NCBI GenBank assembly: GCA_025358085.1
Contig: JANYKT010000082.1
Span: 1-49,324 of the forward strand
Length of the DNA stretch: 49,324 nt
DNA from: Deltaproteobacteria bacterium
GTDB taxonomy: Bacteria > Myxococcota > Myxococcia > Myxococcales > 40CM-4-68-19
Direction: 5' to 3'
The notes under the pieces were generated by a model. That model saw nothing but the letters and a program-made list of their open reading frames with translations, did not search any database and was not told the DNA's origin. Both the position numbers and the translations under genes were made by a program. Of the stretch, positions 180 through 28,064 are shown one piece after another (the first letter of the stretch is position 1; each line of letters opens with the position of its first letter).

Positions 180-206
180 GCTTCGACGATACCTCGCGCG
201 CGACCA

Positions 207-731
207 TCAGCGCAGCGGATAGGTGACGCGCATTCGATAGATGACAGCACGACCCAGCGAGTGCGGCAGGTAACGCTCGTAGCGGAAGGTCGCCGGCGCG
301 CGGACCACGGCGGACAAGAGTCCGGGCAATTGTGGAATGACCAGCTCGTCGCTGCCGGTATAGACGATCTCGCCCTCGCCGGTGGCGCGCGCGGAGAGAT
401 CCAGAATCAACTCGACACCGCGCTCGAGCCGCCGCTGGGCATCGTCATAGACGAGCGAATAGTCGCCGCGCTCGAGGCGGAAGAGCCGCGGGCGGGCGTC
501 GGGCGAGAGCGGCAGCTGGCAAAACTCTTCGGCGAAGCGGTGGAGCGCGGGGGCGCGCGGAAGGTCGGCGAAGGCATAGTGGCCGCGGTGCGCGAGATCG
601 AAAATCTTCCAGGCGCGGTGTTTCCGGAGCGCGGCGGCCTGCTCCGAATCAATCGCTCCGGGAATGAGCGCGCCGAGTGGCCGCAAGGCTTGGATGATTT
701 CGGGCCTGGTAAACGCGCTCTTGAGGATCAT
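207..731 (-). CDS. Hypothetical protein, possible degenerate 2OG-Fe(II) oxygenase fold
   Basis: This 174-residue protein starts at an ATG that overlaps the stop of the upstream 2OG oxygenase (ATGA), so the two are probably translated together. The second half follows the strand order of a 2OG-Fe(II) dioxygenase: GDYSLVYDD, RGVELILDLS, GEGEIVYTG, a P..PGLL strand and a final Arg-rich strand RMRVTYP. The expected iron ligands are not conserved: the HxD position reads YDD, and no clear distal His is seen near YERYLPHS. It may be a non-catalytic partner of the neighbouring oxygenase or a diverged enzyme. The fold assignment is inference from pattern only; the reading frame itself is well supported by the coupling. 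Confidence 0.6.
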   Translation of the reverse strand: MILKSAFTRPEIIQALRPLGALIPGAIDSEQAAALRKHRAWKIFDLAHRGHYAFADLPRAPALHRFAEEFCQLPLSPDARPRLFRLERGDYSLVYDDAQRRLERGVELILDLSARATGEGEIVYTGSDELVIPQLPGLLSAVVRAPATFRYERYLPHSLGRAVIYRMRVTYPLR

Positions 732-8679: not shown

Positions 8680-8783
8680 CTCAGCCACCCGCCCTTCAGC
8701 CGAGTTGGATTAAGTCGCTCCAGCTTGCAAAAGGTCGTACCGTTCGCACTACGGGCGGGTGCCGCCTGGACTGCACTCTGTAC

Positions 8784-8797
8784 AAGTAGGGCTACTT
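8784..8797. promoter_or_regulatory. Short palindrome upstream of the giant kinase gene
   Basis: The 14-bp sequence AAGTAG-GG-CTACTT has perfect 6-bp arms. It lies in the roughly 210-bp gap before the GTG start at 8890, in a stretch noticeably richer in A/T than its surroundings. It could be an operator or part of a promoter; there is no direct evidence for either. Confidence 0.3.
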
Positions 8798-8889
8798 ACT
8801 TCGTCCGCTTCTGCACAGCCGCTCCGCACCGGCGGTCCGTGCGACGCGATATCGACGAACCTCATCGCACTTCTGCAACGGAGCACACC

Positions 8890-16227
<7,338 letters not shown>

Positions 16228-18345: not shown

Positions 18346-18999
18346 ATGAAGCTGCGCGCAATCGATCTTCCTCCGCGGCAGCCCGGCCTCGCGCACACCC
18401 TGGTGCTGCTGCACGGCTATGGCGCCGACGAGCACGACCTGCTGCCCATCGGCCACGAGCTCGACCCGCGGCTGCGCGTGGTCAGCCTGCAGGGTCCCCT
18501 CTCGATGGGCGGCTCGCAGCGCGCCTGGTACAGCCTGCGGCAGGACGGCCGCGGCATCTCCATCGACGCCGCGGAGGCGCGCGAGGGAGCGCGGCTCGTG
18601 GCCGAGGCCGTGGCCGGGATTGTTGAGCTCGGGCACGGAGCGCCTGCGCCGTTCCTGCTGGGCTTCAGCCAGGGCGCCTCGATCGCGCTCGCGGTCGCCT
18701 TGACGCGGCCGCAGCTGTGCAAAGGGGTGATCTCGCTCTCGGGCGTGCCCGCGAGCATCGAGCCCGAAGATCTGGCCGCGCCCGCCGCATTGAAAGGCTT
18801 CCCCGTCTTCGCCGCGCACGGCACGCAGGACCCGGTGATCCCCATCGAGATGGGCCGCGCCAACCGCGCCGAGCTCGGGCGGCTCGGGTGTGACGTCTTC
18901 TGGCGCGAGTACGAGATGGGCCACATGGTGCTGCCGCAGGAGCTGACCGATCTGCGCGCCTGGCTGCTGCCGCGGTTGACGCCGATTAAAATCTCTTAA
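18346..18999 (+). CDS. Phospholipase/carboxylesterase (alpha/beta hydrolase)
   Basis: A 217-residue serine hydrolase of the small carboxylesterase/acyl-protein thioesterase-like group. The oxyanion region is LLHGYGADEHD, the nucleophile S108 is in LLGFSQGAS, the acid is D162 in AAHGTQDPVIP and the catalytic H193 is in YEMGHMV. It begins 10 bp after the kinase stop with GGGG upstream of the ATG. Its last ~20 codons (about 18927-18979) recur in diverged form at 22587-22639, beyond the IetAS genes. The 3' end therefore looks like the integration target of the defence island, and the present C-terminus (LLPRLTPIKIS) may be either the original or a version replaced on integration. Confidence 0.9.
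   Translation: MKLRAIDLPPRQPGLAHTLVLLHGYGADEHDLLPIGHELDPRLRVVSLQGPLSMGGSQRAWYSLRQDGRGISIDAAEAREGARLVAEAVAGIVELGHGAPAPFLLGFSQGASIALAVALTRPQLCKGVISLSGVPASIEPEDLAAPAALKGFPVFAAHGTQDPVIPIEMGRANRAELGRLGCDVFWREYEMGHMVLPQELTDLRAWLLPRLTPIKIS
18927..18979 (+). repeat. Esterase 3'-end repeat, copy in the intact gene
   Basis: This 53-bp stretch inside the carboxylesterase 3' end has a partial copy 3660 bp downstream (22587-22639). By eye about 46 of 54 aligned positions match, including a perfect run of about 20 bases (ggtgctgccgcaggagctga). Confidence 0.7.
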
Positions 19000-19278
19000 T
19001 CCTTTGGTCTTGGAACATCCCGGGGAAAGTGCACCGGCGGGCACGATGTCGCGATCTCCTCCCGGTCCACCCCCTGCCAAGCAAGCCACGGCTTGCGGCG
19101 CTCTACCTCAAATCGACGAAGAACGTTTTTCCTCCACGAGTGGTCTGGTCGACATTGATGCGATTCCGGCGAGATGTGCTGTCTTTTATCACCCAGAGTC
19201 GGCGCCGACAGCCGAGCGAAACCCCATGCCGCGTATTCCTCACTGCCCTCCGGCAAGTCACGCTATCCTTGCGGGGCC

Positions 19279-20160
19279 ATGGCCAACCAGGATCCGCTGC
19301 GAGAGCTCTTCTCCGCCATAGCCGGCCGGCGATGGGACTTGATCACCGTAGCCGCCAGGAGCCTCGCCACGCAGGAGGATCGGAAGGGGCGGCACGCGCT
19401 GGCCCGCGACCTCTATCGGGCGCTGGAGGCGGCTGATCAGGTTGCCCAGCCGATGCTTCCGTCAGGCGGGGCACTGGCGCAACTCGGCTCCTCGCAGGTC
19501 AGCGTGGCCGACGTGGTTTTGACAGGCGTTGCCACTAGGGAGTTGCAACAACTCTTGAGCGAGCACCGCAAGGCGGGGAGCCTGGCGCGGCAAGGACTGC
19601 GTCCACGTCGCAAGCTTCTCTTTTTCGGTCCTCCCGGGTGCGGGAAAAGTTTTACTGCCCGCGCGCTCGGGCACGACTTAGAACTGCCGGTGGCCCTAGT
19701 CCGCTTCGAGCAGTTGATTGGCTCTTGGCTCGGCCAAACTGCACAGCGGCTTCAGGAAGTCTTCACTTTCGCGCGCACGGTCCCGTCGGTGGTCGTCCTC
19801 GACGAGATCGACGCTCTAACCCGCAGCCGTGGCCGGCCAAACGACGTTGGCGAGATGGACCGCACGTTGATCTCGATGCTCCAGAACCTCGAGCATGACG
19901 AGCCCGCCGGCCTCTTGGTTGCCAGCACCAATGTCCCCGAAGCGCTTGATCGGGCGTTATGGCGTCGTTTCGACCTCGTTATCGAATTCCCTCGGCCGGC
20001 GCGCGCCGTCCTCGAGCGTTTCGCCCGCGGGCGGGCGGCAAAGCGGCAGGTGCCTCTCAACGGGAATTTGCGCAAGGCGTCTGCGGGGTGGTCGTCCTAC
20101 GCTGACGCAGAGCGATTCCTCGACGATTTAGTCCGGCGGCGAGTCTTGGAGTCGGAGTGA
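19279..20160 (+). CDS. ietA: AAA ATPase of an IetAS-type anti-phage system
   Basis: This 293-residue AAA+ ATPase has Walker A G117-PPGCGK-S124 (GPPGCGKSFTARAL), Walker B VVVLDEIDAL with D175-E176, a sensor-1-like ASTNVPEALD and arginines in LWRRFDLVIEFPRP. About 110 residues of unassigned sequence precede the ATPase core. It is followed four bases later by a subtilisin-like protease gene. This AAA ATPase + S8 protease pairing is the two-gene IetAS defence system described by Gao et al. 2020. The ATPase presumably controls or feeds the protease during infection; the mechanism is not established here. The ATG at 19279 was chosen because upstream sequence gives an unlikely Cys/Pro-rich extension. 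The 280 bp between it and the esterase hold no gene and presumably contain its promoter. Confidence 0.82.
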   Translation: MANQDPLRELFSAIAGRRWDLITVAARSLATQEDRKGRHALARDLYRALEAADQVAQPMLPSGGALAQLGSSQVSVADVVLTGVATRELQQLLSEHRKAGSLARQGLRPRRKLLFFGPPGCGKSFTARALGHDLELPVALVRFEQLIGSWLGQTAQRLQEVFTFARTVPSVVVLDEIDALTRSRGRPNDVGEMDRTLISMLQNLEHDEPAGLLVASTNVPEALDRALWRRFDLVIEFPRPARAVLERFARGRAAKRQVPLNGNLRKASAGWSSYADAERFLDDLVRRRVLESE

Positions 20161-20164
20161 ACCA

Positions 20165-22546
20165 GTGGCGAAAGACCCGCCTCCTCGCAACTATTTTCTC
20201 AATGAGAAGCACGAGCTGACACCCACGGAAAAGCCGGGAGGGGGACAGGTCCGGCGCTTCAACGGGATCGATTGGGCCGCGAAGGGTCTCGCTCTTTATC
20301 GCTCGTTGTCGGCTGCTCGTAAGATGATCTCGGAGTCCCCAGATCCCTGCCGCGAGAGTCGGTTTTTTCTGGCTGTGCTGCCTGAGAAAGAGTTGCGGCA
20401 GCCGAGCGGGGCGAAGAAAGCCAAGAACAACGAACGGACCATGCGCCCCGACTTCGCTAGCGGCGCGGACGCGTCCAGCCTGCGCCGACTCGGATTGGAC
20501 GTGCTGGGCGTCGCTCGCACTGGCGAGGCGATGGTGCATGCGACGGTCGAGCGGTTAGATCAACTCACCGCCACGAGCCAAAGGCTCGATGACGAAGGGA
20601 TTCGGGAGAAAGCCCTCTGGGCAGCCTTGGCGTTGGTGAATCCAATCCCGATGAGGTTCCGAGTTGATGAGTCGTGGTTGGCTCGGCTGGCCGCCAACGA
20701 GCGCTTCCCCGTCGTGTTCGAATTTCAGCCGGTGCTGAAAGTTGTTGAGGCCGACGCGCTGGCCCGCGAGATCAGGCGGGCGGCGGCAACGCATTCAGCG
20801 TTCGAGTTCGACGCAGCGGGAACACTGTATTCCGGCCGCAAGTGGTATCGCGCGAAGGCGACTCCACAGCAGATCAGGCGAGCGGCAGAAGCCTTTCAGT
20901 CGGTTCAGCGGATCCACCAACCCCATCTCACGCCGGTGAGCGTAGTTGGGCGCGGCAGGCCAGCAAGCGTACAGCCTGTGACTGGCATCGCGCAGGAGGT
21001 GTCGATTTCGCAGCTACCGACCGTGGCGCTGATCGATGCAGGCGTACCGCGTGAGCATCCCGCCCTGAAGCCTTACAGGCGCGGGGGATATGCAAATCAA
21101 GATGGCGTCACCGAGGCGATCGGTTCGCATGCGTCGTTCGTGGCTAGTCGACTGGTGTTCGAAGGTTTCCACGCCGGTAACGAGGCCGTGGACGCGCGCT
21201 GCCGTTTCTTCGACGTCAACGTTGCATCTCCGGAGACGCATGAGGAATCCAGACCGCTCATCGACGATCAGGCGCTGGTCACGTCGATGCTCGCCATCAC
21301 GAATATTGCTCCGGACATTCGCGTCTTCAATCTCAGTCTTGGGGCCGAGAGATCTCTGGACTCAGAGAGCGAGGTCGATCGGCTCGAGAAGCTCGCGAAG
21401 CTGAGCGAGCTTGATAACTTCACGGCCCAGCGCGACCTAGTGGTCGTGGTCGCCGCTGGCAACTCCCCCGCGGGTATCGCTCCCGGCTCCGGCTATCCCG
21501 ACCATCTGGACGACCCCGCGTGGAGGCTGGGCCACTGGGCGTGCGCATTCAACGCGCTGACCGTCGGAGCATATGTTGGCCAGGCGAACACTGACGGCGT
21601 CGCGCGCGTGCGGGGTGCGCCGAGCCCATTCACGCTTGCAGGACCAAGTCCGATCGCACGGGCTCCTAAGCCGGACCATGCGGGGCCAGGCGGTGACGGC
21701 GGAGCGAAATACAATTGGAAGTCCGGCTTGGGCGTTCATGGTCTCAATGCAGAGGGGCTTGTCGAGGACATGTCCGGCACTTCGCAAGCCGTGCCGGTGG
21801 TGTCACAGGTCGCTGCGAGAACGCTGACGTTCCTCGGGGGTCATTGCCCTCCGGGTGCGCGCCCATTCGCAGCGCTCTTGCGCGCCGCCCTGGCTCTTGC
21901 GTCGGAGCAGCCCGCCGAATTGTCGCCAAAGCTTGTTAAGGCCGCAAAGCGGACCCTCGGGCGCGGGGTGCCCCGTCTTCGACGCCTGACAGAGCCGCAG
22001 CCGAGCTGCGCATTGCTGTTCTGGCAGGGAAGCATACCGGACACAAAGCGAGTGGCGCGTGTGCGAGTTCCGCTCCCGCGGGAATGGGTCGCGGATGCGG
22101 CGGAGCCTAGGCTTCGCCTCGTCTTCGCCTGGCTCTCTCCGACGAACGATGCCTACTCGGGATGGGCTTGTCGAAAGGTTAGCGCGGCACTTCGGCCTGC
22201 ATCACCAGCGGGCGCGAAGGGGCTCAAGTTGTTCAAGCGGGTGCTTGCCCATGGGCACTATCCCGTCACAGAGCGAATCTATGATCTGAACCAAATCAAG
22301 GCAGGCATTGACGAGGCGATTCTCGAGCTCAAGTACGACGAACTGCACGAGCCGCCTATTAGCGCTCGGCCGTTCACAGCAGAGACAAAGGTTGGTGTCG
22401 TGATCGAGCTGATCGACGCATCTCCCTCACCACTCAGCCCGCACGCTGCGCTCAGGACACATCCCCTTATTCAAGTAGCGACGCAGCTATCCGTTTCTGC
22501 ACCGGGCATCGCCGTGCCACTATCCTCTTCCCGACCCCTGATCTGA
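20165..22546 (+). CDS. ietS: Subtilisin-like (S8) serine protease of an IetAS-type anti-phage system
   Basis: This 793-residue protein has a complete S8 catalytic triad: D291 in PTVALIDAGVPREHP, H322 in AIGSHASFVASR, and S540 in EDMSGTSQAVPVVS. The oxyanion Asn is in VVVVAAGNSPAG. About 280 residues of N-terminal sequence without a recognised domain precede the protease core, and a beta-rich C-terminal region of about 200 residues follows. No signal peptide is seen, so it should act in the cytoplasm, which fits a defence protease and not a secreted subtilase. It starts with a GTG four bases after the ietA stop. GC content is lower and codon use more mixed than in the flanking genes, consistent with horizontal transfer. 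Confidence 0.82.
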   Translation: MAKDPPPRNYFLNEKHELTPTEKPGGGQVRRFNGIDWAAKGLALYRSLSAARKMISESPDPCRESRFFLAVLPEKELRQPSGAKKAKNNERTMRPDFASGADASSLRRLGLDVLGVARTGEAMVHATVERLDQLTATSQRLDDEGIREKALWAALALVNPIPMRFRVDESWLARLAANERFPVVFEFQPVLKVVEADALAREIRRAAATHSAFEFDAAGTLYSGRKWYRAKATPQQIRRAAEAFQSVQRIHQPHLTPVSVVGRGRPASVQPVTGIAQEVSISQLPTVALIDAGVPREHPALKPYRRGGYANQDGVTEAIGSHASFVASRLVFEGFHAGNEAVDARCRFFDVNVASPETHEESRPLIDDQALVTSMLAITNIAPDIRVFNLSLGAERSLDSESEVDRLEKLAKLSELDNFTAQRDLVVVVAAGNSPAGIAPGSGYPDHLDDPAWRLGHWACAFNALTVGAYVGQANTDGVARVRGAPSPFTLAGPSPIARAPKPDHAGPGGDGGAKYNWKSGLGVHGLNAEGLVEDMSGTSQAVPVVSQVAARTLTFLGGHCPPGARPFAALLRAALALASEQPAELSPKLVKAAKRTLGRGVPRLRRLTEPQPSCALLFWQGSIPDTKRVARVRVPLPREWVADAAEPRLRLVFAWLSPTNDAYSGWACRKVSAALRPASPAGAKGLKLFKRVLAHGHYPVTERIYDLNQIKAGIDEAILELKYDELHEPPISARPFTAETKVGVVIELIDASPSPLSPHAALRTHPLIQVATQLSVSAPGIAVPLSSSRPLI

Positions 22547-22584
22547 CATTGGTTTTCTGCGCGGCGCTGCGTAGCACGCTGGCA

Positions 22585-22650
22585 TGGGTGCTGCCGCAGG
22601 AGCTGATTGATCTGCGCGCGTGGCTGTTCCCGGGTTTGAGCGCTGACTAA
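22585..22650 (+). pseudogene. Partial duplicate of the carboxylesterase 3' end
   Basis: This fragment encodes WVLPQELIDLRAWLFPGLSAD and a stop, parallel to MVLPQELTDLRAWLLPRL in the intact esterase. It has no upstream coding part. It lies directly downstream of ietS and is interpreted as the displaced end of the target gene left after an insertion. Confidence 0.65.
22587..22639 (+). repeat. Esterase 3'-end repeat, distal copy
   Basis: This copy pairs with 18927-18979; together they bracket ietA and ietS in direct orientation, 3660 bp apart. Confidence 0.65.
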
Positions 22651-22808
22651 AAGCCGAGCATTCGACTCAAGGCTTCGACTCGCGCGGGCTCGATTTGCGC
22701 AGCCCAACTTGGATCAACCCCGCAGCTTGCCCATTCGCGATGACGTAGACCCAGCCCGCGCCGTTCGGTCGAGACACCACGAGAAAAGCCCTTTGGCGCG
22801 ATAGGTTC
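22647..22808 (-). pseudogene. Decayed T5orf172 / GIY-YIG-like domain fragment
   Basis: On the minus strand, one frame reads RPNGAGWVYVIANGQAAGLI and then QVGLRKSSP. After a one-base shift a second frame continues ARVEALSRMLGF and stops at 22647. Put together this matches the usual T5orf172/GIY-YIG-like consensus of the form GYVYVLxNPxMPGLxKIGxTxxxPExRxxELS. The domain is common in phage and mobile-element genes. The frameshift and missing remainder indicate a relic. The identification comes from motif memory only. Confidence 0.45.
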
Positions 22809-22958
22809 TTATGTTAGCGGTCGCCTGCTAATAGAGACCGTGGGAGTCCCGAAGAAAGGTCGCTTGATATCAACATCGCCGCGAGAGTACGCCTCAAGCA
22901 GAGCGAGGCCGTGGGACGGCGTGATTCGTCCGCAGTCGAGACAGCGATGAATGCGCAT
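22809..22958 (-). CDS. Possible small CxxC protein, uncertain
   Basis: This 49-residue open frame starts with an ATG at 22958 and contains RCLDCGRITPSHGLALLEAY and KRPFFGTPTVSIS. The composition looks protein-like and CLDCG could bind zinc, but there is no clear ribosome-binding site. The same frame stays open upstream to a stop about 50 bp away, so it may instead be another gene fragment in this decayed patch. The rest of 22959-23167 shows no gene. Confidence 0.25.
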   Translation of the reverse strand: MRIHRCLDCGRITPSHGLALLEAYSRGDVDIKRPFFGTPTVSISRRPLT

Positions 22959-23167
22959 GCCGTCCACTGCCAAGAAACACGTTGTGGGCGCTGGCTGAGC
23001 TCCCTCCGTCTCTCATCGAGAGCAGGACGAGAAACGTGCTTGCTGCCCACCCGAGAGCAGCGAGGCCAACGGTCCGCGAAGCGCTGGCGTACGAATGAGG
23101 CCCTCGGTGGCGAGTGGAACTCGTCGGCGCATGGTGCCTGGGCGAGCTTGCGCAGCTCGCACGCATG

Positions 23168-23184
23168 CCTTACAGCCGGTAAGG
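23168..23184. promoter_or_regulatory. Inverted repeat in front of vapB, possible VapBC operator
   Basis: CCTTAC-agccg-GTAAGG, with perfect 6-bp arms, ends 15 bp before the vapB ATG. VapB/AbrB antitoxins usually repress their own operon by binding such palindromes near the promoter, so it is a natural candidate operator; this is inference from position. Confidence 0.5.
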
Positions 23185-23199
23185 AAAGAAGGAACCGCG

Positions 23200-23439
23200 A
23201 TGCCCAGCGCCAAGTTGACGAGCAAGGGCCAGATCACGATCCCGAAGGAAGTGCGCAAGGCCCTCGGATTGCACACCGGAGACCGCCTCGCGTTCCGCGT
23301 CGACGACAACGGGACCGTTGTCGTCGAGGCCGAGAAGGTCAGTCTGACCACGCTCCGCGGGGCCGTGCACACGACTGTCAAAGGCGTGACCGTGGGTGCG
23401 ATGAACGAAGTCATCCGAGGAGCCGGCGGGCGCGGATGA
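23200..23439 (+). CDS. vapB: AbrB-family (SpoVT-AbrB/VapB-type) antitoxin
   Basis: A 79-residue DNA-binding antitoxin. The N-terminal swapped-hairpin domain is typical: AKLTSKGQITIPKEVRKALG, then HTGDRLAFRVDDNGTVVVEA. The tail after residue 50 would wrap around the toxin. The ATG at 23200 follows an AAGGA site and the inverted repeat at 23168-23184. Its stop overlaps the toxin start (ATGA), the standard coupled antitoxin-toxin order. An upstream in-frame start would add 35 residues of unrelated sequence and was rejected. Confidence 0.9.
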   Translation: MPSAKLTSKGQITIPKEVRKALGLHTGDRLAFRVDDNGTVVVEAEKVSLTTLRGAVHTTVKGVTVGAMNEVIRGAGGRG

Positions 23440-23831
23440 TCGCTCTCGACACGAACGTGCTGGTCCGCTTCCTGGTGGTGGACGACAAGGCGCAGTCGGC
23501 GAGAGCAGCCAGGCTGGTCGACGGAGCGGTCGCGAGGAACGAGACGCTGTTCGTCTCGGACGTGGTGATCTGCGAAACCGTCCGGGTGTTGCTCTCCGCC
23601 TACCTGGTTTCGCGAGCGAAGGTTGGCGAAATTCTCGATCAACTTCTCAAAGCCACTCACCTCAGCTTCCGGGACGTCGACAGCCTGTTGCGCGCTCTCG
23701 AGGCGTTTGTCGCTGGCAGAGGCGACTTCGCCGACTACGTGATCAAGGAGCACGCGCGCAGGGCCGACTGTGAAAAAGTAGCGACATTCGATCGCGCGCT
23801 CTTGAAGGAAGACGGCTTCCTGGCGCCCTGA
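23436..23831 (+). CDS. vapC: PIN-domain ribonuclease toxin (VapC-like)
   Basis: A 131-residue PIN-domain protein with the acidic catalytic set: D5 in ALDTNVLVRFL, E47 in VICETV, D97/D100 in GRGDFADYVI and D119 in ATFDRALL. VapC toxins cleave tRNA or rRNA and are held inactive by the cognate antitoxin. The gene overlaps vapB by four bases. Length and motif spacing are normal, so it looks intact. The pair lies inside the accessory region next to the IetAS genes, where it may stabilise the island; that role is inference. Confidence 0.9.
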   Translation: MIALDTNVLVRFLVVDDKAQSARAARLVDGAVARNETLFVSDVVICETVRVLLSAYLVSRAKVGEILDQLLKATHLSFRDVDSLLRALEAFVAGRGDFADYVIKEHARRADCEKVATFDRALLKEDGFLAP

Positions 23832-23906
23832 GTCCAGTTAGTCGCTTGCCCGCCTCGCGCTCAGACACTAGCAGCCCAACCGTTACTGCATGCCGTTCTC
23901 CAGCCT

Positions 23907-24104
23907 GCGAACGATCTCTCCCTGGCGGCTCTGCTCTTTTGCCGTGCACCCGTTCCCAACGCGGGCCCCTCAGCAGGAGGGGACGGCGGCGCGACGGGAG
24001 GCGGCCTCGACGCCGGCGGGACGGGAGGCGCGGGCTCCGATGTCGGGTCGGGCACGGACGCAGGCGGATTCAGTTGCAGGAGGATTCGACCAATCGTCTC
24101 GTAG
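23907..24104 (+). pseudogene. Truncated lipoprotein start with Gly/Asp-rich linker
   Basis: A plus-strand frame reads DLSLAALLFCRAPVPNAGPS, followed by a long GGDGGATGGGLDAGGTGG-type linker, then FSCRR and a stop at 24102-24104. This resembles a signal/Cys plus the flexible tether of a myxobacterial lipoprotein, but no folded domain follows and no good start codon is seen. The break is close to the 3' end of the foreign-looking esterase (24162-25724), so that segment may have cut the gene. A minus-strand open frame (23861-24199) covers the same stretch but is Pro-rich and probably a shadow. Nothing else is seen in 23832-24161. Confidence 0.4.
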
Positions 24105-24161
24105 CTTGCTTTTCGGTACATGAAGTATTCGATACCGGCCTGCCGGGCAATCGAGACAAGT

Positions 24162-25724
24162 CTACCGCGCAAGGAACGGACTGCCGCGTATGTTCGCATA
24201 GACCACGTCGAAAATTTTCAGCCTGTCGAGACTGTATACATCCCCGACACGGATTGGATTGTCGAGATACAGCACGTCCTGGGCACCTGCTAAAAAAGCA
24301 GGCCAGTTCTCGAGGCCCTTGCCATTCGGATTCCCTGATTGCGCGAAGTTGGTCCAGTAACGGGACATATCATTCGCCAGCTTCCTGTCGGCAGCGCTCC
24401 AGTGCCAGGACGTCTGATCCAGATGGTCGAACATGTACCAGAGTTCGGCAAAATGGCTGGCACCCCAACCCGCGTACACCGAATTGGCTGGAAACGGCGG
24501 TCGCTGCTGGAACGCGTAGTAAAACACCGGACTATTGCCCGCCGCCGCGTGCAACCGGGCCCAGGCCCACATGTCCCAGCCGAATCGCAAATCACGTTCC
24601 AGCCCAAGGCGTGCTTGTCGCGCTTCATCATCGGTGTGGTGGGGATATGCGTCCAGCAGTTGCGTCGGCAATGCGCCGAAGTGCTGTTCAATGTCGGCGT
24701 CGAAGCCCAATGCCTTGACTGCACTGACGTCGACCAGGGAGCGTGCTTCCTCGGTATTGGATCCGAGCAGCAATGGCACATCATATTGACGTCCGAGAAC
24801 GTAGGCTTGATAGGGCGACATCGGCAGCACATAGGGTTCGATGACGGGATGAGCCAATGCGTCGGCGCCGCCCCCCAGCAGGGCAGCCGCCAGCAGCTTG
24901 CGCAGTGCTTCGAGTGATTGCACGTTGAGCGTCGTCGCGAACTTGACACCATCGCGCTCCGCATTGGCGAGCAGGTAACCGGGCGCGAGCTGAAGCGGCT
25001 CGAAAATTCCGCCGCTCTGGCCGATGGCTCGCTGGAAGAGTCCATTCGCGCGCGGCGACACCAGCAGGGCGCTGACCGCCATCGCACCGGACGACTGCCC
25101 GGCGATGGTCACGCGCTGTGGGTCGCCGCCAAACACGGCGATATTGCGTTGAATCCATTCCAATGCGGCGATCTGATCCATCAACCCGTAATTGCCGGAC
25201 GAGTGATGGGCAGATTCTTTCGTTAGTTCCGGATGGGCCAGGAAGCCCAGTGCGCCAAGCCGATAGGCAAGTGTGACGACAATCACGCCCCGGTGCGCGA
25301 GCCGGGCGCCATCGTAGAGCGGCATTGAGGTCGCGCCGTTGGTGTAGCCGCCTCCGTGTATCCACGCGATTACGGGGAGGCGTGCGCCGCTACCGTTCTC
25401 AGGCGTCCAGATATTCAGATAGAGGCAATCCTCGCTGACCGGTGGTGGCGATTCGCCAGGCATCGACACGCCCTTTTGCATGCAGGCGGGCGCGAACGTC
25501 GTCGCCTTGCGCACTCCCCGCCAGGGCGCGACCGGCGCCGGTTCGCGCCAGCGCCGCTCACCCACCGGCGCGGCGGCAAAGGGAATGCCTCGGTAAACGG
25601 TCAAGCCGTTCTGCTGGGTTCCCTGCACTGCGCCGGACTCTGTTCGGGCCGTTCCGGCCAGGGCCGGACTCCCCAACTGGGCCGACAACGTCATCCAAAC
25701 CAATGCGCCATAGATCTTCTGCAT
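24162..25724 (-). CDS. Secreted type-B carboxylesterase
   Basis: This 520-residue alpha/beta hydrolase of the COesterase family has an N-terminal signal peptide (LVWMTLSAQLGSPALAG). The nucleophile is S211 in TIAGQSSGAMAVS, the acid is the Glu in LGSNTEEARSL and the catalytic His is in WGASHFAELW. The oxyanion motif is WIHGGGYTNG, and EDCLYLNIWTPE is the family signature. Its length is normal for bacterial members. Its GC content is visibly lower than that of flanking genes and the protein reads like a proteobacterial enzyme, suggesting recent acquisition. It sits at the end of the accessory region, opposite in direction to IetAS and VapBC. The ATG at 25724 is preceded by GGGG. Confidence 0.92.
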   Translation of the reverse strand: MQKIYGALVWMTLSAQLGSPALAGTARTESGAVQGTQQNGLTVYRGIPFAAAPVGERRWREPAPVAPWRGVRKATTFAPACMQKGVSMPGESPPPVSEDCLYLNIWTPENGSGARLPVIAWIHGGGYTNGATSMPLYDGARLAHRGVIVVTLAYRLGALGFLAHPELTKESAHHSSGNYGLMDQIAALEWIQRNIAVFGGDPQRVTIAGQSSGAMAVSALLVSPRANGLFQRAIGQSGGIFEPLQLAPGYLLANAERDGVKFATTLNVQSLEALRKLLAAALLGGGADALAHPVIEPYVLPMSPYQAYVLGRQYDVPLLLGSNTEEARSLVDVSAVKALGFDADIEQHFGALPTQLLDAYPHHTDDEARQARLGLERDLRFGWDMWAWARLHAAAGNSPVFYYAFQQRPPFPANSVYAGWGASHFAELWYMFDHLDQTSWHWSAADRKLANDMSRYWTNFAQSGNPNGKGLENWPAFLAGAQDVLYLDNPIRVGDVYSLDRLKIFDVVYANIRGSPFLAR

Positions 25725-25832
25725 GACGACCCCGATTCATTGTGCAGAGGCACCAGTGTCCGTGCCAGGCGTAGGCGGGGCAGGGGTGGCGGGCGTCATC
25801 TGCATTGAAATCTTTTCGCCGGTCAGGCGCGG

Positions 25833-26100
25833 TTATTTCAGCTCGCGCGCGATCGCGCGGCGGAGGGTCTCCTGGTCGATGTTGGCGCCCGCAACGACTA
25901 AAGGAATGCTGGTCCGCGCGGCGTGAGATCGACCTGGCCCGGCGCGAAGAAGTGCAGGCCTTCTCCGAAATCCTCCACGCGGCGGGGGTTCGTGATCGAG
26001 CGCCCAGAATTCTGCGTCGTCGATGCGCCCGATTCCTTTGAAGAGCAGCAGGGCCAGGATCACGCGAGCCGCCTCCGGGAGTGTCTGCGCGCGGCGAAGC
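25833..26100 (-). pseudogene. Frameshifted remnant, possibly the end of a CobW/G3E-type GTPase
   Basis: No intact gene is seen in 25725-26100. On the minus strand, protein-like segments occur in alternating frames: RVILALLLFKGIGRIDDAEF, then NPRRVEDFGEGLHFFAPGQV, then IPLVVAGANIDQETLRRAI and RELK with a stop at 25833. The ending is weakly reminiscent of the C-terminal strand-helix of CobW/G3E GTPases (LVFIGxxLDxxxL) or, alternatively, of the end of a PLP-dependent dehydratase. At least two frame changes would be needed. Treat it as an unidentified relic. Confidence 0.3.
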
Positions 26101-26835
26101 TCAAGGAAGCGGAGAGGCGGCGGCTGCACGCGCGCGGTGGAATTGCTCCAGCGCGAGGTTCGCCTGCGCAACGAGTGCGAGTTTTTCTTCGACAGCGGCC
26201 AGCGACGCGCCCGGAATGGCGAAGTATCCTTCGTCGTCAGGCGCGCCGGTATAGACGCGGTTGCCGACGCAGCCGAAGCTCGCCGAGGTCCGCGCGGAGT
26301 TGATGGCCTCGGGCAGCACCGCGCAGGTCGGGCGGCCCAGCGCGGGACCGTGGCCAGCCACGCCCGCGGCCTGCGCCGCCTCGGACAAGAGCATGAGCTG
26401 CCGCGCCGTGCCGCGCACCAGCACTACGTCCGGCGGCGGCTGCGAACCCGGCGCGAGCGGCGAGCCCGGCGGCGGCTGCGGATTCGGCGCGAGCGGCGCA
26501 TAGACCGCGACCTGCAGCGGTGTCTTTCGCGTCGGGATCCGCGGGACCTCGTCCGGCTTCAGATAGCTCATGCCGACCATCAGCTGCACCAGGCCCGACA
26601 GCTCCTCTTGCTCGCCCGCCGAGAGCGGCACGTTGTGCGTGTGCGCGCCGATGGGGCAGCCCTTGTGATCGTCCGCGACGGTATAGAAAGTCTCGCCCTG
26701 GGCGGCCCTTCGCCAGTACCCGCATCCGGCGGCCTCGCGCGCGGAGACCCGCGGCACGCCCGCGGGCGGGGCGTCGACGAAGGAGATAGCGACGGGCGCC
26801 GAGGACAGGCCGAGCAGCTCTTGCAAACGCATCAT
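26101..26835 (-). CDS. DUF169 family protein
   Basis: This 244-residue protein matches the DUF169 pattern. The N-terminal part is LGLSSAPVAISFVDAPPAGV, followed by AGCGYWRRAAQGETFYTVAD and DHKGCPIGAHTHNV with conserved Cys and His. LPEAINSARTSASFGCVGNR and DDEGYFAIPG come near the C-terminus. DUF169 proteins are uncharacterised; the conserved Cys residues could bind a metal or cluster. The ATG at 26835 follows a strong GGAGG site with 7-bp spacing; a second ATG follows at once. This same ribosome-binding site and first codons are copied in front of the methyltransferase at 27570, as part of the direct repeat. Confidence 0.8.
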   Translation of the reverse strand: MMRLQELLGLSSAPVAISFVDAPPAGVPRVSAREAAGCGYWRRAAQGETFYTVADDHKGCPIGAHTHNVPLSAGEQEELSGLVQLMVGMSYLKPDEVPRIPTRKTPLQVAVYAPLAPNPQPPPGSPLAPGSQPPPDVVLVRGTARQLMLLSEAAQAAGVAGHGPALGRPTCAVLPEAINSARTSASFGCVGNRVYTGAPDDEGYFAIPGASLAAVEEKLALVAQANLALEQFHRARAAAASPLP

Positions 26836-26837
26836 GG

Positions 26838-26910
26838 GAAGACCTCCGGGCGCGTTTTCTAGCACGGGTTATGCTCGGGCCATGGGGATTGAGATCGAGC
26901 GAAAGTTCCT
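26838..26910 (+). repeat. 73-bp direct repeat, left copy
   Basis: Identical at 72 of 73 positions to 27574-27646 (difference at 26867/27603). It spans the ribosome-binding site of DUF169, the intergenic region and the first codons of the CYTH gene. Confidence 0.95.
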
Positions 26911-26931
26911 GCTGCCGCGGTTGCATGCCGA
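26882..26931 (+). pseudogene. Duplicated 5' end of the CYTH gene
   Basis: It reads MGIEIERKFLLPRLHADQP, matching the start of the intact CYTH protein at 27618 for nine residues and then diverging. It runs into the opposite-strand methyltransferase end. It is a truncated duplicate left by the insertion, not a functional gene. Confidence 0.8.
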
Positions 26932-27570
26932 TCAGCCCTTCGGTGGAACATTCCAGGGCAGGGGCGTCGGCGGTTCCGCGTGGCCGTATTCCCATTTCGC
27001 ACGGCCTTCCACCTTGTTCCAGTCGACCCAGGGTTCAGCTATCTTTCGCGTGAGGACGGTGATGTTGCTCCCCGCCTCATTCAATCCGACGGAGGAGACC
27101 TCCAGGTAATGCTTCTGGAGGAAGCTTAGGACATTGCCGAAGTCTTTTTTCCTGCGGGTATCGTGAAAGAGCAAACGTCCTCCTGCCTTCAGCAGCTTCC
27201 AGGCATCGAGTGCGAAACGTTCACGGTATTTGTCGGCGCCATCGTCAAAGATGAGATCAAACGGCGCCTCCGCGGTGACGGCCTCCTGCCAATCGCGATA
27301 GGCGATGAACCTGACTTCCTTCTCGATAGAAAGGCGAGCGAGATTCTGCTTCGTCCGTTCAATCCATTTCGGCTCCGTTTCGACTGAAATCAAGGTCCCT
27401 TCAATCGAACCATTCTTTGCCAGGATTTGAGTTGAAGCTCCGGAACCGAACTCAAGGATCCGGGATGCATTCCGGGCGTAAACGGCCAGGAGCTCTGCGT
27501 CGGTGGCGGACAGGTCCCCGATGTATCTCAAAGGGAGTGGCTTGCAGGCCTGCTGTTGCAAAGTCGCCAT
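26932..27570 (-). CDS. Class I SAM-dependent methyltransferase (inserted gene)
   Basis: This 212-residue protein has the Rossmann methyltransferase motif I ILEFGSGASTQILA (about residues 38-51). A motif II-like Glu follows in LISVETEPKW, then PFDLIFDDGADKYRERF and LLKAGGRLLFHDTRR. This fits the Methyltransf_24-like group; the substrate is unknown. The gene is markedly lower in GC than everything around it. It lies wholly between two 73-bp direct repeats and begins just inside the right one, so its GGAGG ribosome-binding site is a copy of that of DUF169. Even its first codons (atg gcg act ttg caa) resemble the DUF169 start (atg atg cgt ttg caa). It ends 21 bp from the left repeat. Confidence 0.82.
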   Translation of the reverse strand: MATLQQQACKPLPLRYIGDLSATDAELLAVYARNASRILEFGSGASTQILAKNGSIEGTLISVETEPKWIERTKQNLARLSIEKEVRFIAYRDWQEAVTAEAPFDLIFDDGADKYRERFALDAWKLLKAGGRLLFHDTRRKKDFGNVLSFLQKHYLEVSSVGLNEAGSNITVLTRKIAEPWVDWNKVEGRAKWEYGHAEPPTPLPWNVPPKG

Positions 27571-27573
27571 GAT

Positions 27574-27646
27574 GAAGACCTCCGGGCGCGTTTTCTAGCA
27601 CGAGTTATGCTCGGGCCATGGGGATTGAGATCGAGCGAAAGTTCCT
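27574..27646 (+). repeat. 73-bp direct repeat, right copy
   Basis: Partner of 26838-26910, offset by 736 bp. In this copy the plus-strand part leads into the intact CYTH gene and the minus-strand part supplies the methyltransferase ribosome-binding site. Confidence 0.95.
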
Positions 27647-28064
27647 CGTGCTGCGCGAGCTACTCCCTTCCGATCTGCCGGCCGCGGATGAGATCGAGCA
27701 GGGCTATCTGAGCGCCAGCCCGACAGTGCGCGTGCGCACGCGGCGTAGAGGGAGCGGCGAGCGCAAGGGCGAATTGACCATCAAGGGAAGGGGCAAGCTG
27801 TCGCGGGCTGAGTGGAACTACGAGATCCCGGCTGCTGAGGCGGACGAGCTGCTGGAGCTCTGCGCGACCAGCCTCCGCAAGACGCGCCGCGAGCTGGGCC
27901 GTTGGGAGCTGGACTACTTCGCCGACCGCGATCTCTGGCTCGCGGAGATTGAATTGGAAACCGAGGACGAGCCATTCGAACGGCCTGACTGGCTGGGCGA
28001 CGAGGTGACGAGCGACGGCAGCTACTCCAACTCGCGGCTTGCCACCGGGAGGGTCAGACGATAA
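27618..28064 (+). CDS. CYTH domain (triphosphate tunnel metalloenzyme) protein
   Basis: This 148-residue protein begins MGIEIERKFLV, which holds the ExExK motif that defines CYTH enzymes. Further tunnel residues are seen in TVRVRTRRRG, KGELTIKGRGKLSRAEWNYE, RRELGRWELDYFADRD and LAEIELETEDE. Short bacterial members hydrolyse tripolyphosphate or nucleoside triphosphates using Mg or Mn. Length and motif order are normal, so this is the functional copy; the start is duplicated at 26882. It is followed 10 bp later by an M16 peptidase gene. Confidence 0.88.
   Translation: MGIEIERKFLVLRELLPSDLPAADEIEQGYLSASPTVRVRTRRRGSGERKGELTIKGRGKLSRAEWNYEIPAAEADELLELCATSLRKTRRELGRWELDYFADRDLWLAEIELETEDEPFERPDWLGDEVTSDGSYSNSRLATGRVRR

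What the first reader, a model, noticed from the sequence alone, without database searches (positions are those of the whole stretch)
19279..22546. IetAS-type AAA ATPase / subtilisin protease defence pair
Two tightly spaced genes encode an AAA ATPase (GPPGCGKS, LDEID) and a cytoplasmic S8 protease with an intact D291/H322/S540 triad. This gene order and pairing match the IetAS anti-phage system reported by Gao et al. 2020. The protease has about 280 N-terminal and about 200 C-terminal residues with no domain I can name, which are likely target-recognition regions. How the protease is triggered and what it cuts remain unknown for the family, so a divergent myxobacterial example is useful.
Basis: partly seen in the sequence, partly recalled or inferred. 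Interest (0 to 1): 0.75.

Follow-up and report, generated by a model that had tools for sequence, protein, structure and literature searches.

The report
Divergent IetAS protease–ATPase defence pair
Two adjacent genes encode a cell-internal cutting enzyme and the ATP-driven partner that most likely keeps it in check; it is a distant but otherwise ordinary example of a known bacterial anti-virus / self-poisoning module, apparently acquired horizontally next to an esterase gene.

Summary
19279-20160 encodes a 293-aa AAA ATPase and 20165-22546 a 793-aa S8 protease with triad D291/H322/S540. The IetAS call is supported: PADLOC IetA E=1e-57, IetS E=1e-37. Of 95 IetA-type ATPases in the fetched loci, 87 are directly followed by an IetS-type protease, and 5 of the other 8 run into a contig end. 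The ATPase and protease trees agree (Mantel r=0.975). The window pair and one homologue (G126) form a deep lineage that no dedicated PADLOC profile fits.
The N-terminal region is not simply 'target recognition': residues ~181-252 look like an inhibitor-I9 prodomain, with moderate evidence. The pair lies in an 8.6-kb low-GC3 insertion, absent from five relatives, and is bracketed by a 53-bp imperfect direct repeat of the 3' end of the upstream esterase gene.
Likely mechanism: IetA restrains a toxic protease; infection or loss of IetA releases it. New member of a known kind.

The parts
19279..20160 (+). IetA-type AAA ATPase, 293 aa: helical N-terminal part (helices within residues 6-55), AAA domain 113-238, helical lid
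   Evidence: PADLOC IetA 1e-57; AF2 mean pLDDT 82.8
19627..19650 (+). Walker A GPPGCGKS (residues 117-124)
19723..19734 (+). pore-loop-1-like S-W-L-G (residues 149-152); aromatic at this position (F/Y/W) in 57/57 homologues, L and G 57/57
   Evidence: alignment with p97/VCP D2 'kWvGes'
19789..19812 (+). Walker B VVVLDEID (residues 171-178)
19963..19968 (+). two arginine-finger residues R229 R230, 57/57
20165..22546 (+). IetS-type S8 (subtilisin-like) protease, 793 aa, GTG start
   Evidence: (PADLOC IetS 9.9e-38)
20705..20920 (+). inhibitor-I9-prodomain-like unit (residues ~181-252; beta-alpha-beta-beta-alpha-beta in the AF2 model)
   Evidence: secondary structure; profile match to I9, P=3e-4, best only here along the protein
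21017..21829 (+). Peptidase_S8 catalytic domain (residues 285-555)
21035..21037 (+). catalytic Asp291
   Evidence: 83/83
21128..21130 (+). catalytic His322
   Evidence: 83/83
21782..21784 (+). catalytic Ser540
   Evidence: 83/83
22007..22417 (+). C-terminal beta-sandwich (residues ~615-751), like the C-terminal domain of subtilases KP-43 and ProN-Tk-SP
18927..18999 (+). left copy: 3' end of the upstream esterase gene (18346-18999)
22587..22650 (+). right copy: esterase 3'-end fragment (VLPQELIDLRAWLFPGLSAD*), 46/53 nt identical to the left copy
19000..27617 (.). 8.6-kb accessory insertion between esterase and CYTH gene; absent in five relatives; GC3 mostly 0.67-0.74 (0.84 in the DUF169 gene) against 0.82-0.90 in neighbours

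Best explanation
A two-gene module of the IetAS family. The downstream gene encodes a cytoplasmic subtilisin-like protease (IetS) that is harmful to the cell when free. The upstream gene encodes a single-ring AAA ATPase (IetA) that keeps it in check and uses ATP to do so, probably by engaging or threading IetS, or a segment of it, through its pore loops. When a phage disturbs this balance (in relatives, by its replication proteins), or when the cassette is lost and IetA runs out, the protease is freed, cuts cell and/or phage proteins and stops growth before the phage can multiply. It therefore works both as abortive defence and as a self-stabilising toxin-antitoxin cassette. Shown here: gene order, intact active sites, family membership by profile, obligate pairing, co-inheritance, conserved threading motifs, horizontal insertion. 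Shown by others in relatives: protease toxic, ATPase neutralising. Inferred: hexamer, threading of IetS, trigger, targets, anti-phage activity of this pair.
For: PADLOC IetA/IetS hits. 87 of 95 IetA-type ATPases are followed directly by an S8 partner; 5 of the 8 exceptions are at contig ends. IetA and IetS tree distances correlate at r=0.975 with 0 of 2000 permutations as high, and G126 is the window's nearest row in both. Triad 83/83. Walker motifs, aromatic pore loop and two Arg fingers conserved 57/57; closest solved relatives are p97/Cdc48/FtsH/26S threading ATPases. Experimental relatives: in SGI1, S025 protease cuts transformation 100-1000-fold in E. coli and S026 ATPase restores it (PMC5006074); mycoplasma AAA/subtilisin pair is a functional TA (PMC8562856); ietAS is listed as activated by phage core replication proteins (PMC10732053). 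Neighbours of homologues include type III DNA methylases, phage integrases, GmrSD, KwaB, AbiEi and Zeta toxin. Ten of 11 viral-contig relatives also carry the ATPase just upstream.
Against: The window pair is far from all tested examples (at most 36% identity for IetA and 22% for IetS to the genome contigs homologues; 40%/36% to G126). No PADLOC profile fits it at subtype level (127.9 bits, against 413-1203 for two typical IetS proteins). NCBIfam equivalog cut-offs are not met, though no PADLOC-recognised pair sampled meets them either. In the window no other defence gene lies nearby except a VapBC-like pair. No experiment addresses this pair. The neighbourhood survey had no background control.
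Confidence: 0.66

Rival explanations
1. Pure addiction module: the pair stabilises the DNA that carries it (plasmid- or island-borne TA) and has no meaningful anti-phage role here.
For: SGI1 SgiAT and pTiC58 IetAS were found as maintenance systems (PMC5006074; title of Yamamoto 2009 as cited in PMC8562856). A Bradyrhizobium plasmid homologue lies between a VapBC and a PrlF/YhaV TA near repA. The window pair sits in a mobile-looking insertion next to an AbrB/PIN pair.
Against: IetAS is listed among systems activated by phage replication proteins (PMC10732053); homologue neighbourhoods contain restriction and other defence genes. The two roles are not exclusive.
Confidence: 0.2
2. ATP-dependent protease machine: IetA is an unfoldase that feeds substrates to IetS (like the Rpt ring and 20S, or FtsH split in two), doing regulated proteolysis not tied to phage.
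For: Aromatic pore loop and Arg fingers conserved in all IetA; nearest folds are threading ATPases.
Against: In relatives the ATPase neutralises the protease instead of being needed for its toxicity (PMC5006074, PMC8562856). The patchy distribution and insertion in an accessory island do not fit housekeeping.
Confidence: 0.1
3. Decaying remnant without function.
For: Low-GC3 insertion with a gene fragment and non-coding stretches around it.
Against: Both reading frames are intact with all catalytic residues, and the gene pair structure is preserved.
Confidence: 0.04

Closest known systems
IetAS anti-phage system (PADLOC IetA PDLC04232/02196, IetS PDLC02197; Gao et al. 2020, from general knowledge)
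   Same: Gene order ATPase then protease, near-zero spacing, AAA Walker motifs, S8 triad, profile matches 1e-57 and 1e-37
   Different: Deep separate lineage with G126; IetS matches all IetS subtypes only at cross-subtype level (best 127.9 bits); IetA about 35 aa shorter than the sampled homologues
SGI1 SgiAT (S026 ATPase antitoxin / S025 subtilisin toxin), PMC5006074
   Same: Same domain pair, same order; SGI1 also integrates at the 3' end of a gene (trmE; PMC8409611 abstract). The S. Typhimurium ietAS studied in PMC9958689 is ICE-borne, and that paper names SGI1 among its elements
   Different: Found as island-maintenance TA; no direct sequence comparison was made here; the window cassette has no visible integrase
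Mycoplasma TA132/TA133 AAA-ATPase/subtilisin TA (PMC8562856)
   Same: Same pair and order; one genomic copy is also flanked by direct repeats
   Different: Tenericute lineage; no direct sequence comparison was made here
pTiC58 IetA/IetS (Yamamoto et al. 2009; cited in PMC8562856, PMC5006074)
   Same: Namesake pair: serine protease toxin, AAA-ATPase antitoxin
   Different: Plasmid-borne; sequence not compared here (not fetched)

Membership tests
IetAS (PADLOC) | IetA-type AAA ATPase | tested here: met
   PDLC04232 E=1e-57 over residues 1-292
IetAS (PADLOC) | IetS-type S8 protease | tested here: met
   PDLC02197 E=9.9e-38, residues 110-639; subtype-level score weak: 127.9 bits against 413-1203 for two typical members
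IetAS (PADLOC) | Adjacent genes, ATPase upstream, same strand | tested here: met
   4-nt gap; same arrangement in 87/95 homologous loci
IetAS (PADLOC) | Intact protease triad and ATPase motifs | tested here: met
IetAS (PADLOC) | Protects against phage | not testable with these tools
   needs an experiment
NCBIfam IteA/IteS equivalogs (NF042959, NF042956) | Score above curated equivalog cut-off | tested here: not met
   171 of 510 and 111 of 900 bits; the ten other sampled proteins (five IetA/IetS pairs) also fail, so it is not filed as an equivalog but this does not exclude the wider family
AAA-ATPase/subtilisin toxin-antitoxin systems (IetAS, SgiAT, TA132/133) | Protease toxic alone, ATPase neutralises | not testable with these tools
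   shown for relatives in PMC5006074 and PMC8562856 only
AAA-ATPase/subtilisin toxin-antitoxin systems (IetAS, SgiAT, TA132/133) | Antitoxin gene upstream of toxin gene in one operon-like unit | tested here: met
Subtilases with inhibitor-I9 prodomain | I9 domain before the catalytic domain | tested here: inconclusive
   No Pfam I9 hit in 29 members; profile-profile P=3e-4 confined to 181-260 and beta-alpha-beta-beta-alpha-beta topology; not found in another IetS clade

The most novel reading that the evidence does not exclude
The window pair and its G126 relative are an undescribed IetAS subtype in which the protease carries a built-in I9-like inhibitory prodomain that is never shed, and IetA is a pore-loop remodeller acting on that prodomain: it holds the zymogen closed with ATP, and phage interference lets the prodomain be pulled away. 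The module spreads as a minimal two-gene cassette inserted at gene 3' ends.
Probability: 0.15. Interest if true: 0.6.

Novelty: new member of a known kind. Interest (0 to 1): 0.33.

Why it matters
IetAS is one of several defence systems whose effector is a protease, and no chain in the PDB copy is recognisably similar in sequence to this IetS. A divergent pair with every catalytic and threading residue conserved helps separate essential features from lineage noise. It also ties one protein pair to both toxin-antitoxin and anti-phage literature. The I9-like prodomain gives a concrete, testable idea of how the protease is held inactive.

Tried and rejected
(1) P-loop cysteine (GPPGCGK) as an IetA hallmark or redox switch: invariant in the first set only because the search pattern contained it; other clades have T, S, V or N. 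(2) tblastn of the protease against plasmids (no hit), pattern scan of genome contigs with the protease alone (no hit), and blastn against phages (no hit): too divergent; homologues came through the ATPase and through profiles. (3) Second I9-like unit at 90-165: no profile support. (4) I9-like unit in the other large IetS clade: not detected. (5) Sigma-70-type promoter near the pair: none found (such scans say little here). (6) Other defence genes in the insertion: a few window genes scanned, only weak or generic hits.

Full report
Observation. Pfam finds AAA at 113-238 of the ATPase and Peptidase_S8 at 285-555 of the protease. D291, H322 and S540 are the catalytic triad; they and the oxyanion Asn433 are invariant in 83 of 83 aligned homologues.

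Family. PADLOC profiles IetA (1e-57) and IetS (9.9e-38) are the best matches. NCBIfam's IteA/IteS equivalog cut-offs are not reached (171 of 510 and 111 of 900 bits), but none of the five other pairs sampled reaches them either, so those cut-offs mark a narrow clade. Against PADLOC's several IetS profiles, two typical proteins score 413-1203 bits with their own subtype; the window protein and its closest relative score about 127 bits with the best one. They therefore belong to the wider family as a lineage without a dedicated profile.

Pairing and co-inheritance. A scan of genome contigs with the ATPase and a profile search of 195 genomes of the same phylum, plus two plasmid records, gave 95 IetA-type ATPases; 87 are directly followed on the same strand by an IetS-type protease, and 5 of the other 8 end at a contig edge. 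Path distances in the IetA and IetS trees of 74 pairs correlate at r=0.975 (0 of 2000 permutations as high), and the window is sister to the G126 pair in the ATPase tree (99% support) and nearest to it in the protease tree. The G126 pair is 40% (ATPase) and 36% over 790 aa (protease) identical, with start and stop overlapping. Ten of 11 viral contigs with an IetS relative also have the ATPase just upstream.

Anatomy. IetA: a helical N-terminal part, an AAA domain and a lid. Position 150 is aromatic (F 38, Y 18, W 1) and is followed by invariant L-G; T217-N218 and R229-R230 are invariant. The nearest solved relatives are p97, Cdc48, NVL/Rix7, FtsH and the 26S ring, all of which thread polypeptides (their activity from general knowledge). 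Threading by IetA is inferred from this. IetS: about 90 N-terminal residues of low model confidence; two alpha/beta units (90-160, 181-251); the S8 domain; and a C-terminal beta-sandwich (mean pLDDT 66). The best solved folds are ProN-Tk-SP, which keeps its propeptide and has a C-terminal beta domain, then KP-43 and SubHal. Residues 181-251 have the order beta-alpha-beta-beta-alpha-beta of subtilisin I9 propeptides. A profile of 24 I9 domains from related genomes aligns only with this stretch (best window 181-260, P=3e-4, probability 40%; everything outside the overlapping windows far weaker). Pfam's I9 model finds nothing in 29 members and another IetS clade gives no signal, so the evidence is moderate.

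Setting. In five relatives of the same family (L171-L175) the upstream esterase gene is directly followed by the CYTH gene (window 27618-28064); in the window 8.6 kb lie between them. Genes in that stretch have GC3 mostly of 0.67-0.74 (the DUF169 gene 0.84), against 0.82-0.90 in the flanking genes. The pair is bracketed by the 3' end of the esterase gene and a second, diverged, in-frame copy of it ending at a stop codon (46/53 nt; the best other match in the window is 33/53). No integrase was seen in the genes examined between the repeats. The rest of the insertion holds an AbrB/MazE-like plus PIN pair, a carboxylesterase, a DUF169 protein and a methyltransferase-like protein. The mycoplasma homologue also has flanking direct repeats (PMC8562856), and SGI1, which carries SgiAT, integrates at the 3' end of trmE (PMC8409611 abstract).

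What is known. AAA-ATPase/subtilisin pairs were characterised as toxin-antitoxin systems on pTiC58 (Yamamoto et al. 2009, cited in both papers read here), SGI1 (PMC5006074) and in mycoplasmas (PMC8562856). The same kind of pair is counted as anti-phage ietAS; its mechanism was called undescribed in 2023 (PMC9958689), and phage replication proteins are named as activators in PMC10732053. From my own knowledge, not checked here: the pTiC58 study reported that active-site residues of IetS are needed for toxicity and ATP binding by IetA for the system to work, and Gao et al. 2020 showed protection of E. coli. Neighbours of the homologues sampled here include DNA methylases, integrases, GmrSD, KwaB, AbiEi and Zeta toxin, without a background control.

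Mechanism. The best reading is a protease toxin held in check by an ATP-driven partner, released on infection or loss of the cassette. For this pair the domain content, intact residues and pairing are shown; toxicity, neutralisation, trigger, targets and phage protection are inferred from relatives. Verdict: a real, intact, horizontally acquired and divergent IetAS module; new member of a known kind, modest interest, with one testable structural idea.

Noticed in passing
window 18927-18999 and 22587-22650: Imperfect 53-nt direct repeat: a second, in-frame, diverged copy of the 3' end of the esterase gene lies just after the protease gene.
   Followed up: yes
window 19000-27617: 8.6-kb insertion between esterase and CYTH genes that are adjacent in five relatives; lower GC3 than the surroundings in most of its genes.
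   Followed up: yes
window 23200-23831: AbrB/MazE-type antitoxin and PIN-domain toxin genes (VapBC-like) overlapping by 4 nt, just downstream of the pair; a Bradyrhizobium plasmid homologue also has VapBC next door.
   Followed up: partly
window 8725-16227: 2500-aa hybrid histidine kinase with many near-identical HAMP-like repeats followed by kinase and several receiver domains.
   Followed up: no
window 26932-27570 (-): Methyltransferase-like protein matching part of the PADLOC mad2 profile (E=4.6e-13, partial); probably generic.
   Followed up: no
L157 (G126:C41), L207, L208, L195: A second, very divergent AAA/S8 pair lineage in related genomes, at the root of the IetA tree; three of the four have weak scores with the IetS alignment profile.
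   Followed up: partly
L242-L252 (viral contigs): IetA/IetS pairs on 10 of 11 contigs labelled viral, i.e. likely prophage-borne copies.
   Followed up: partly
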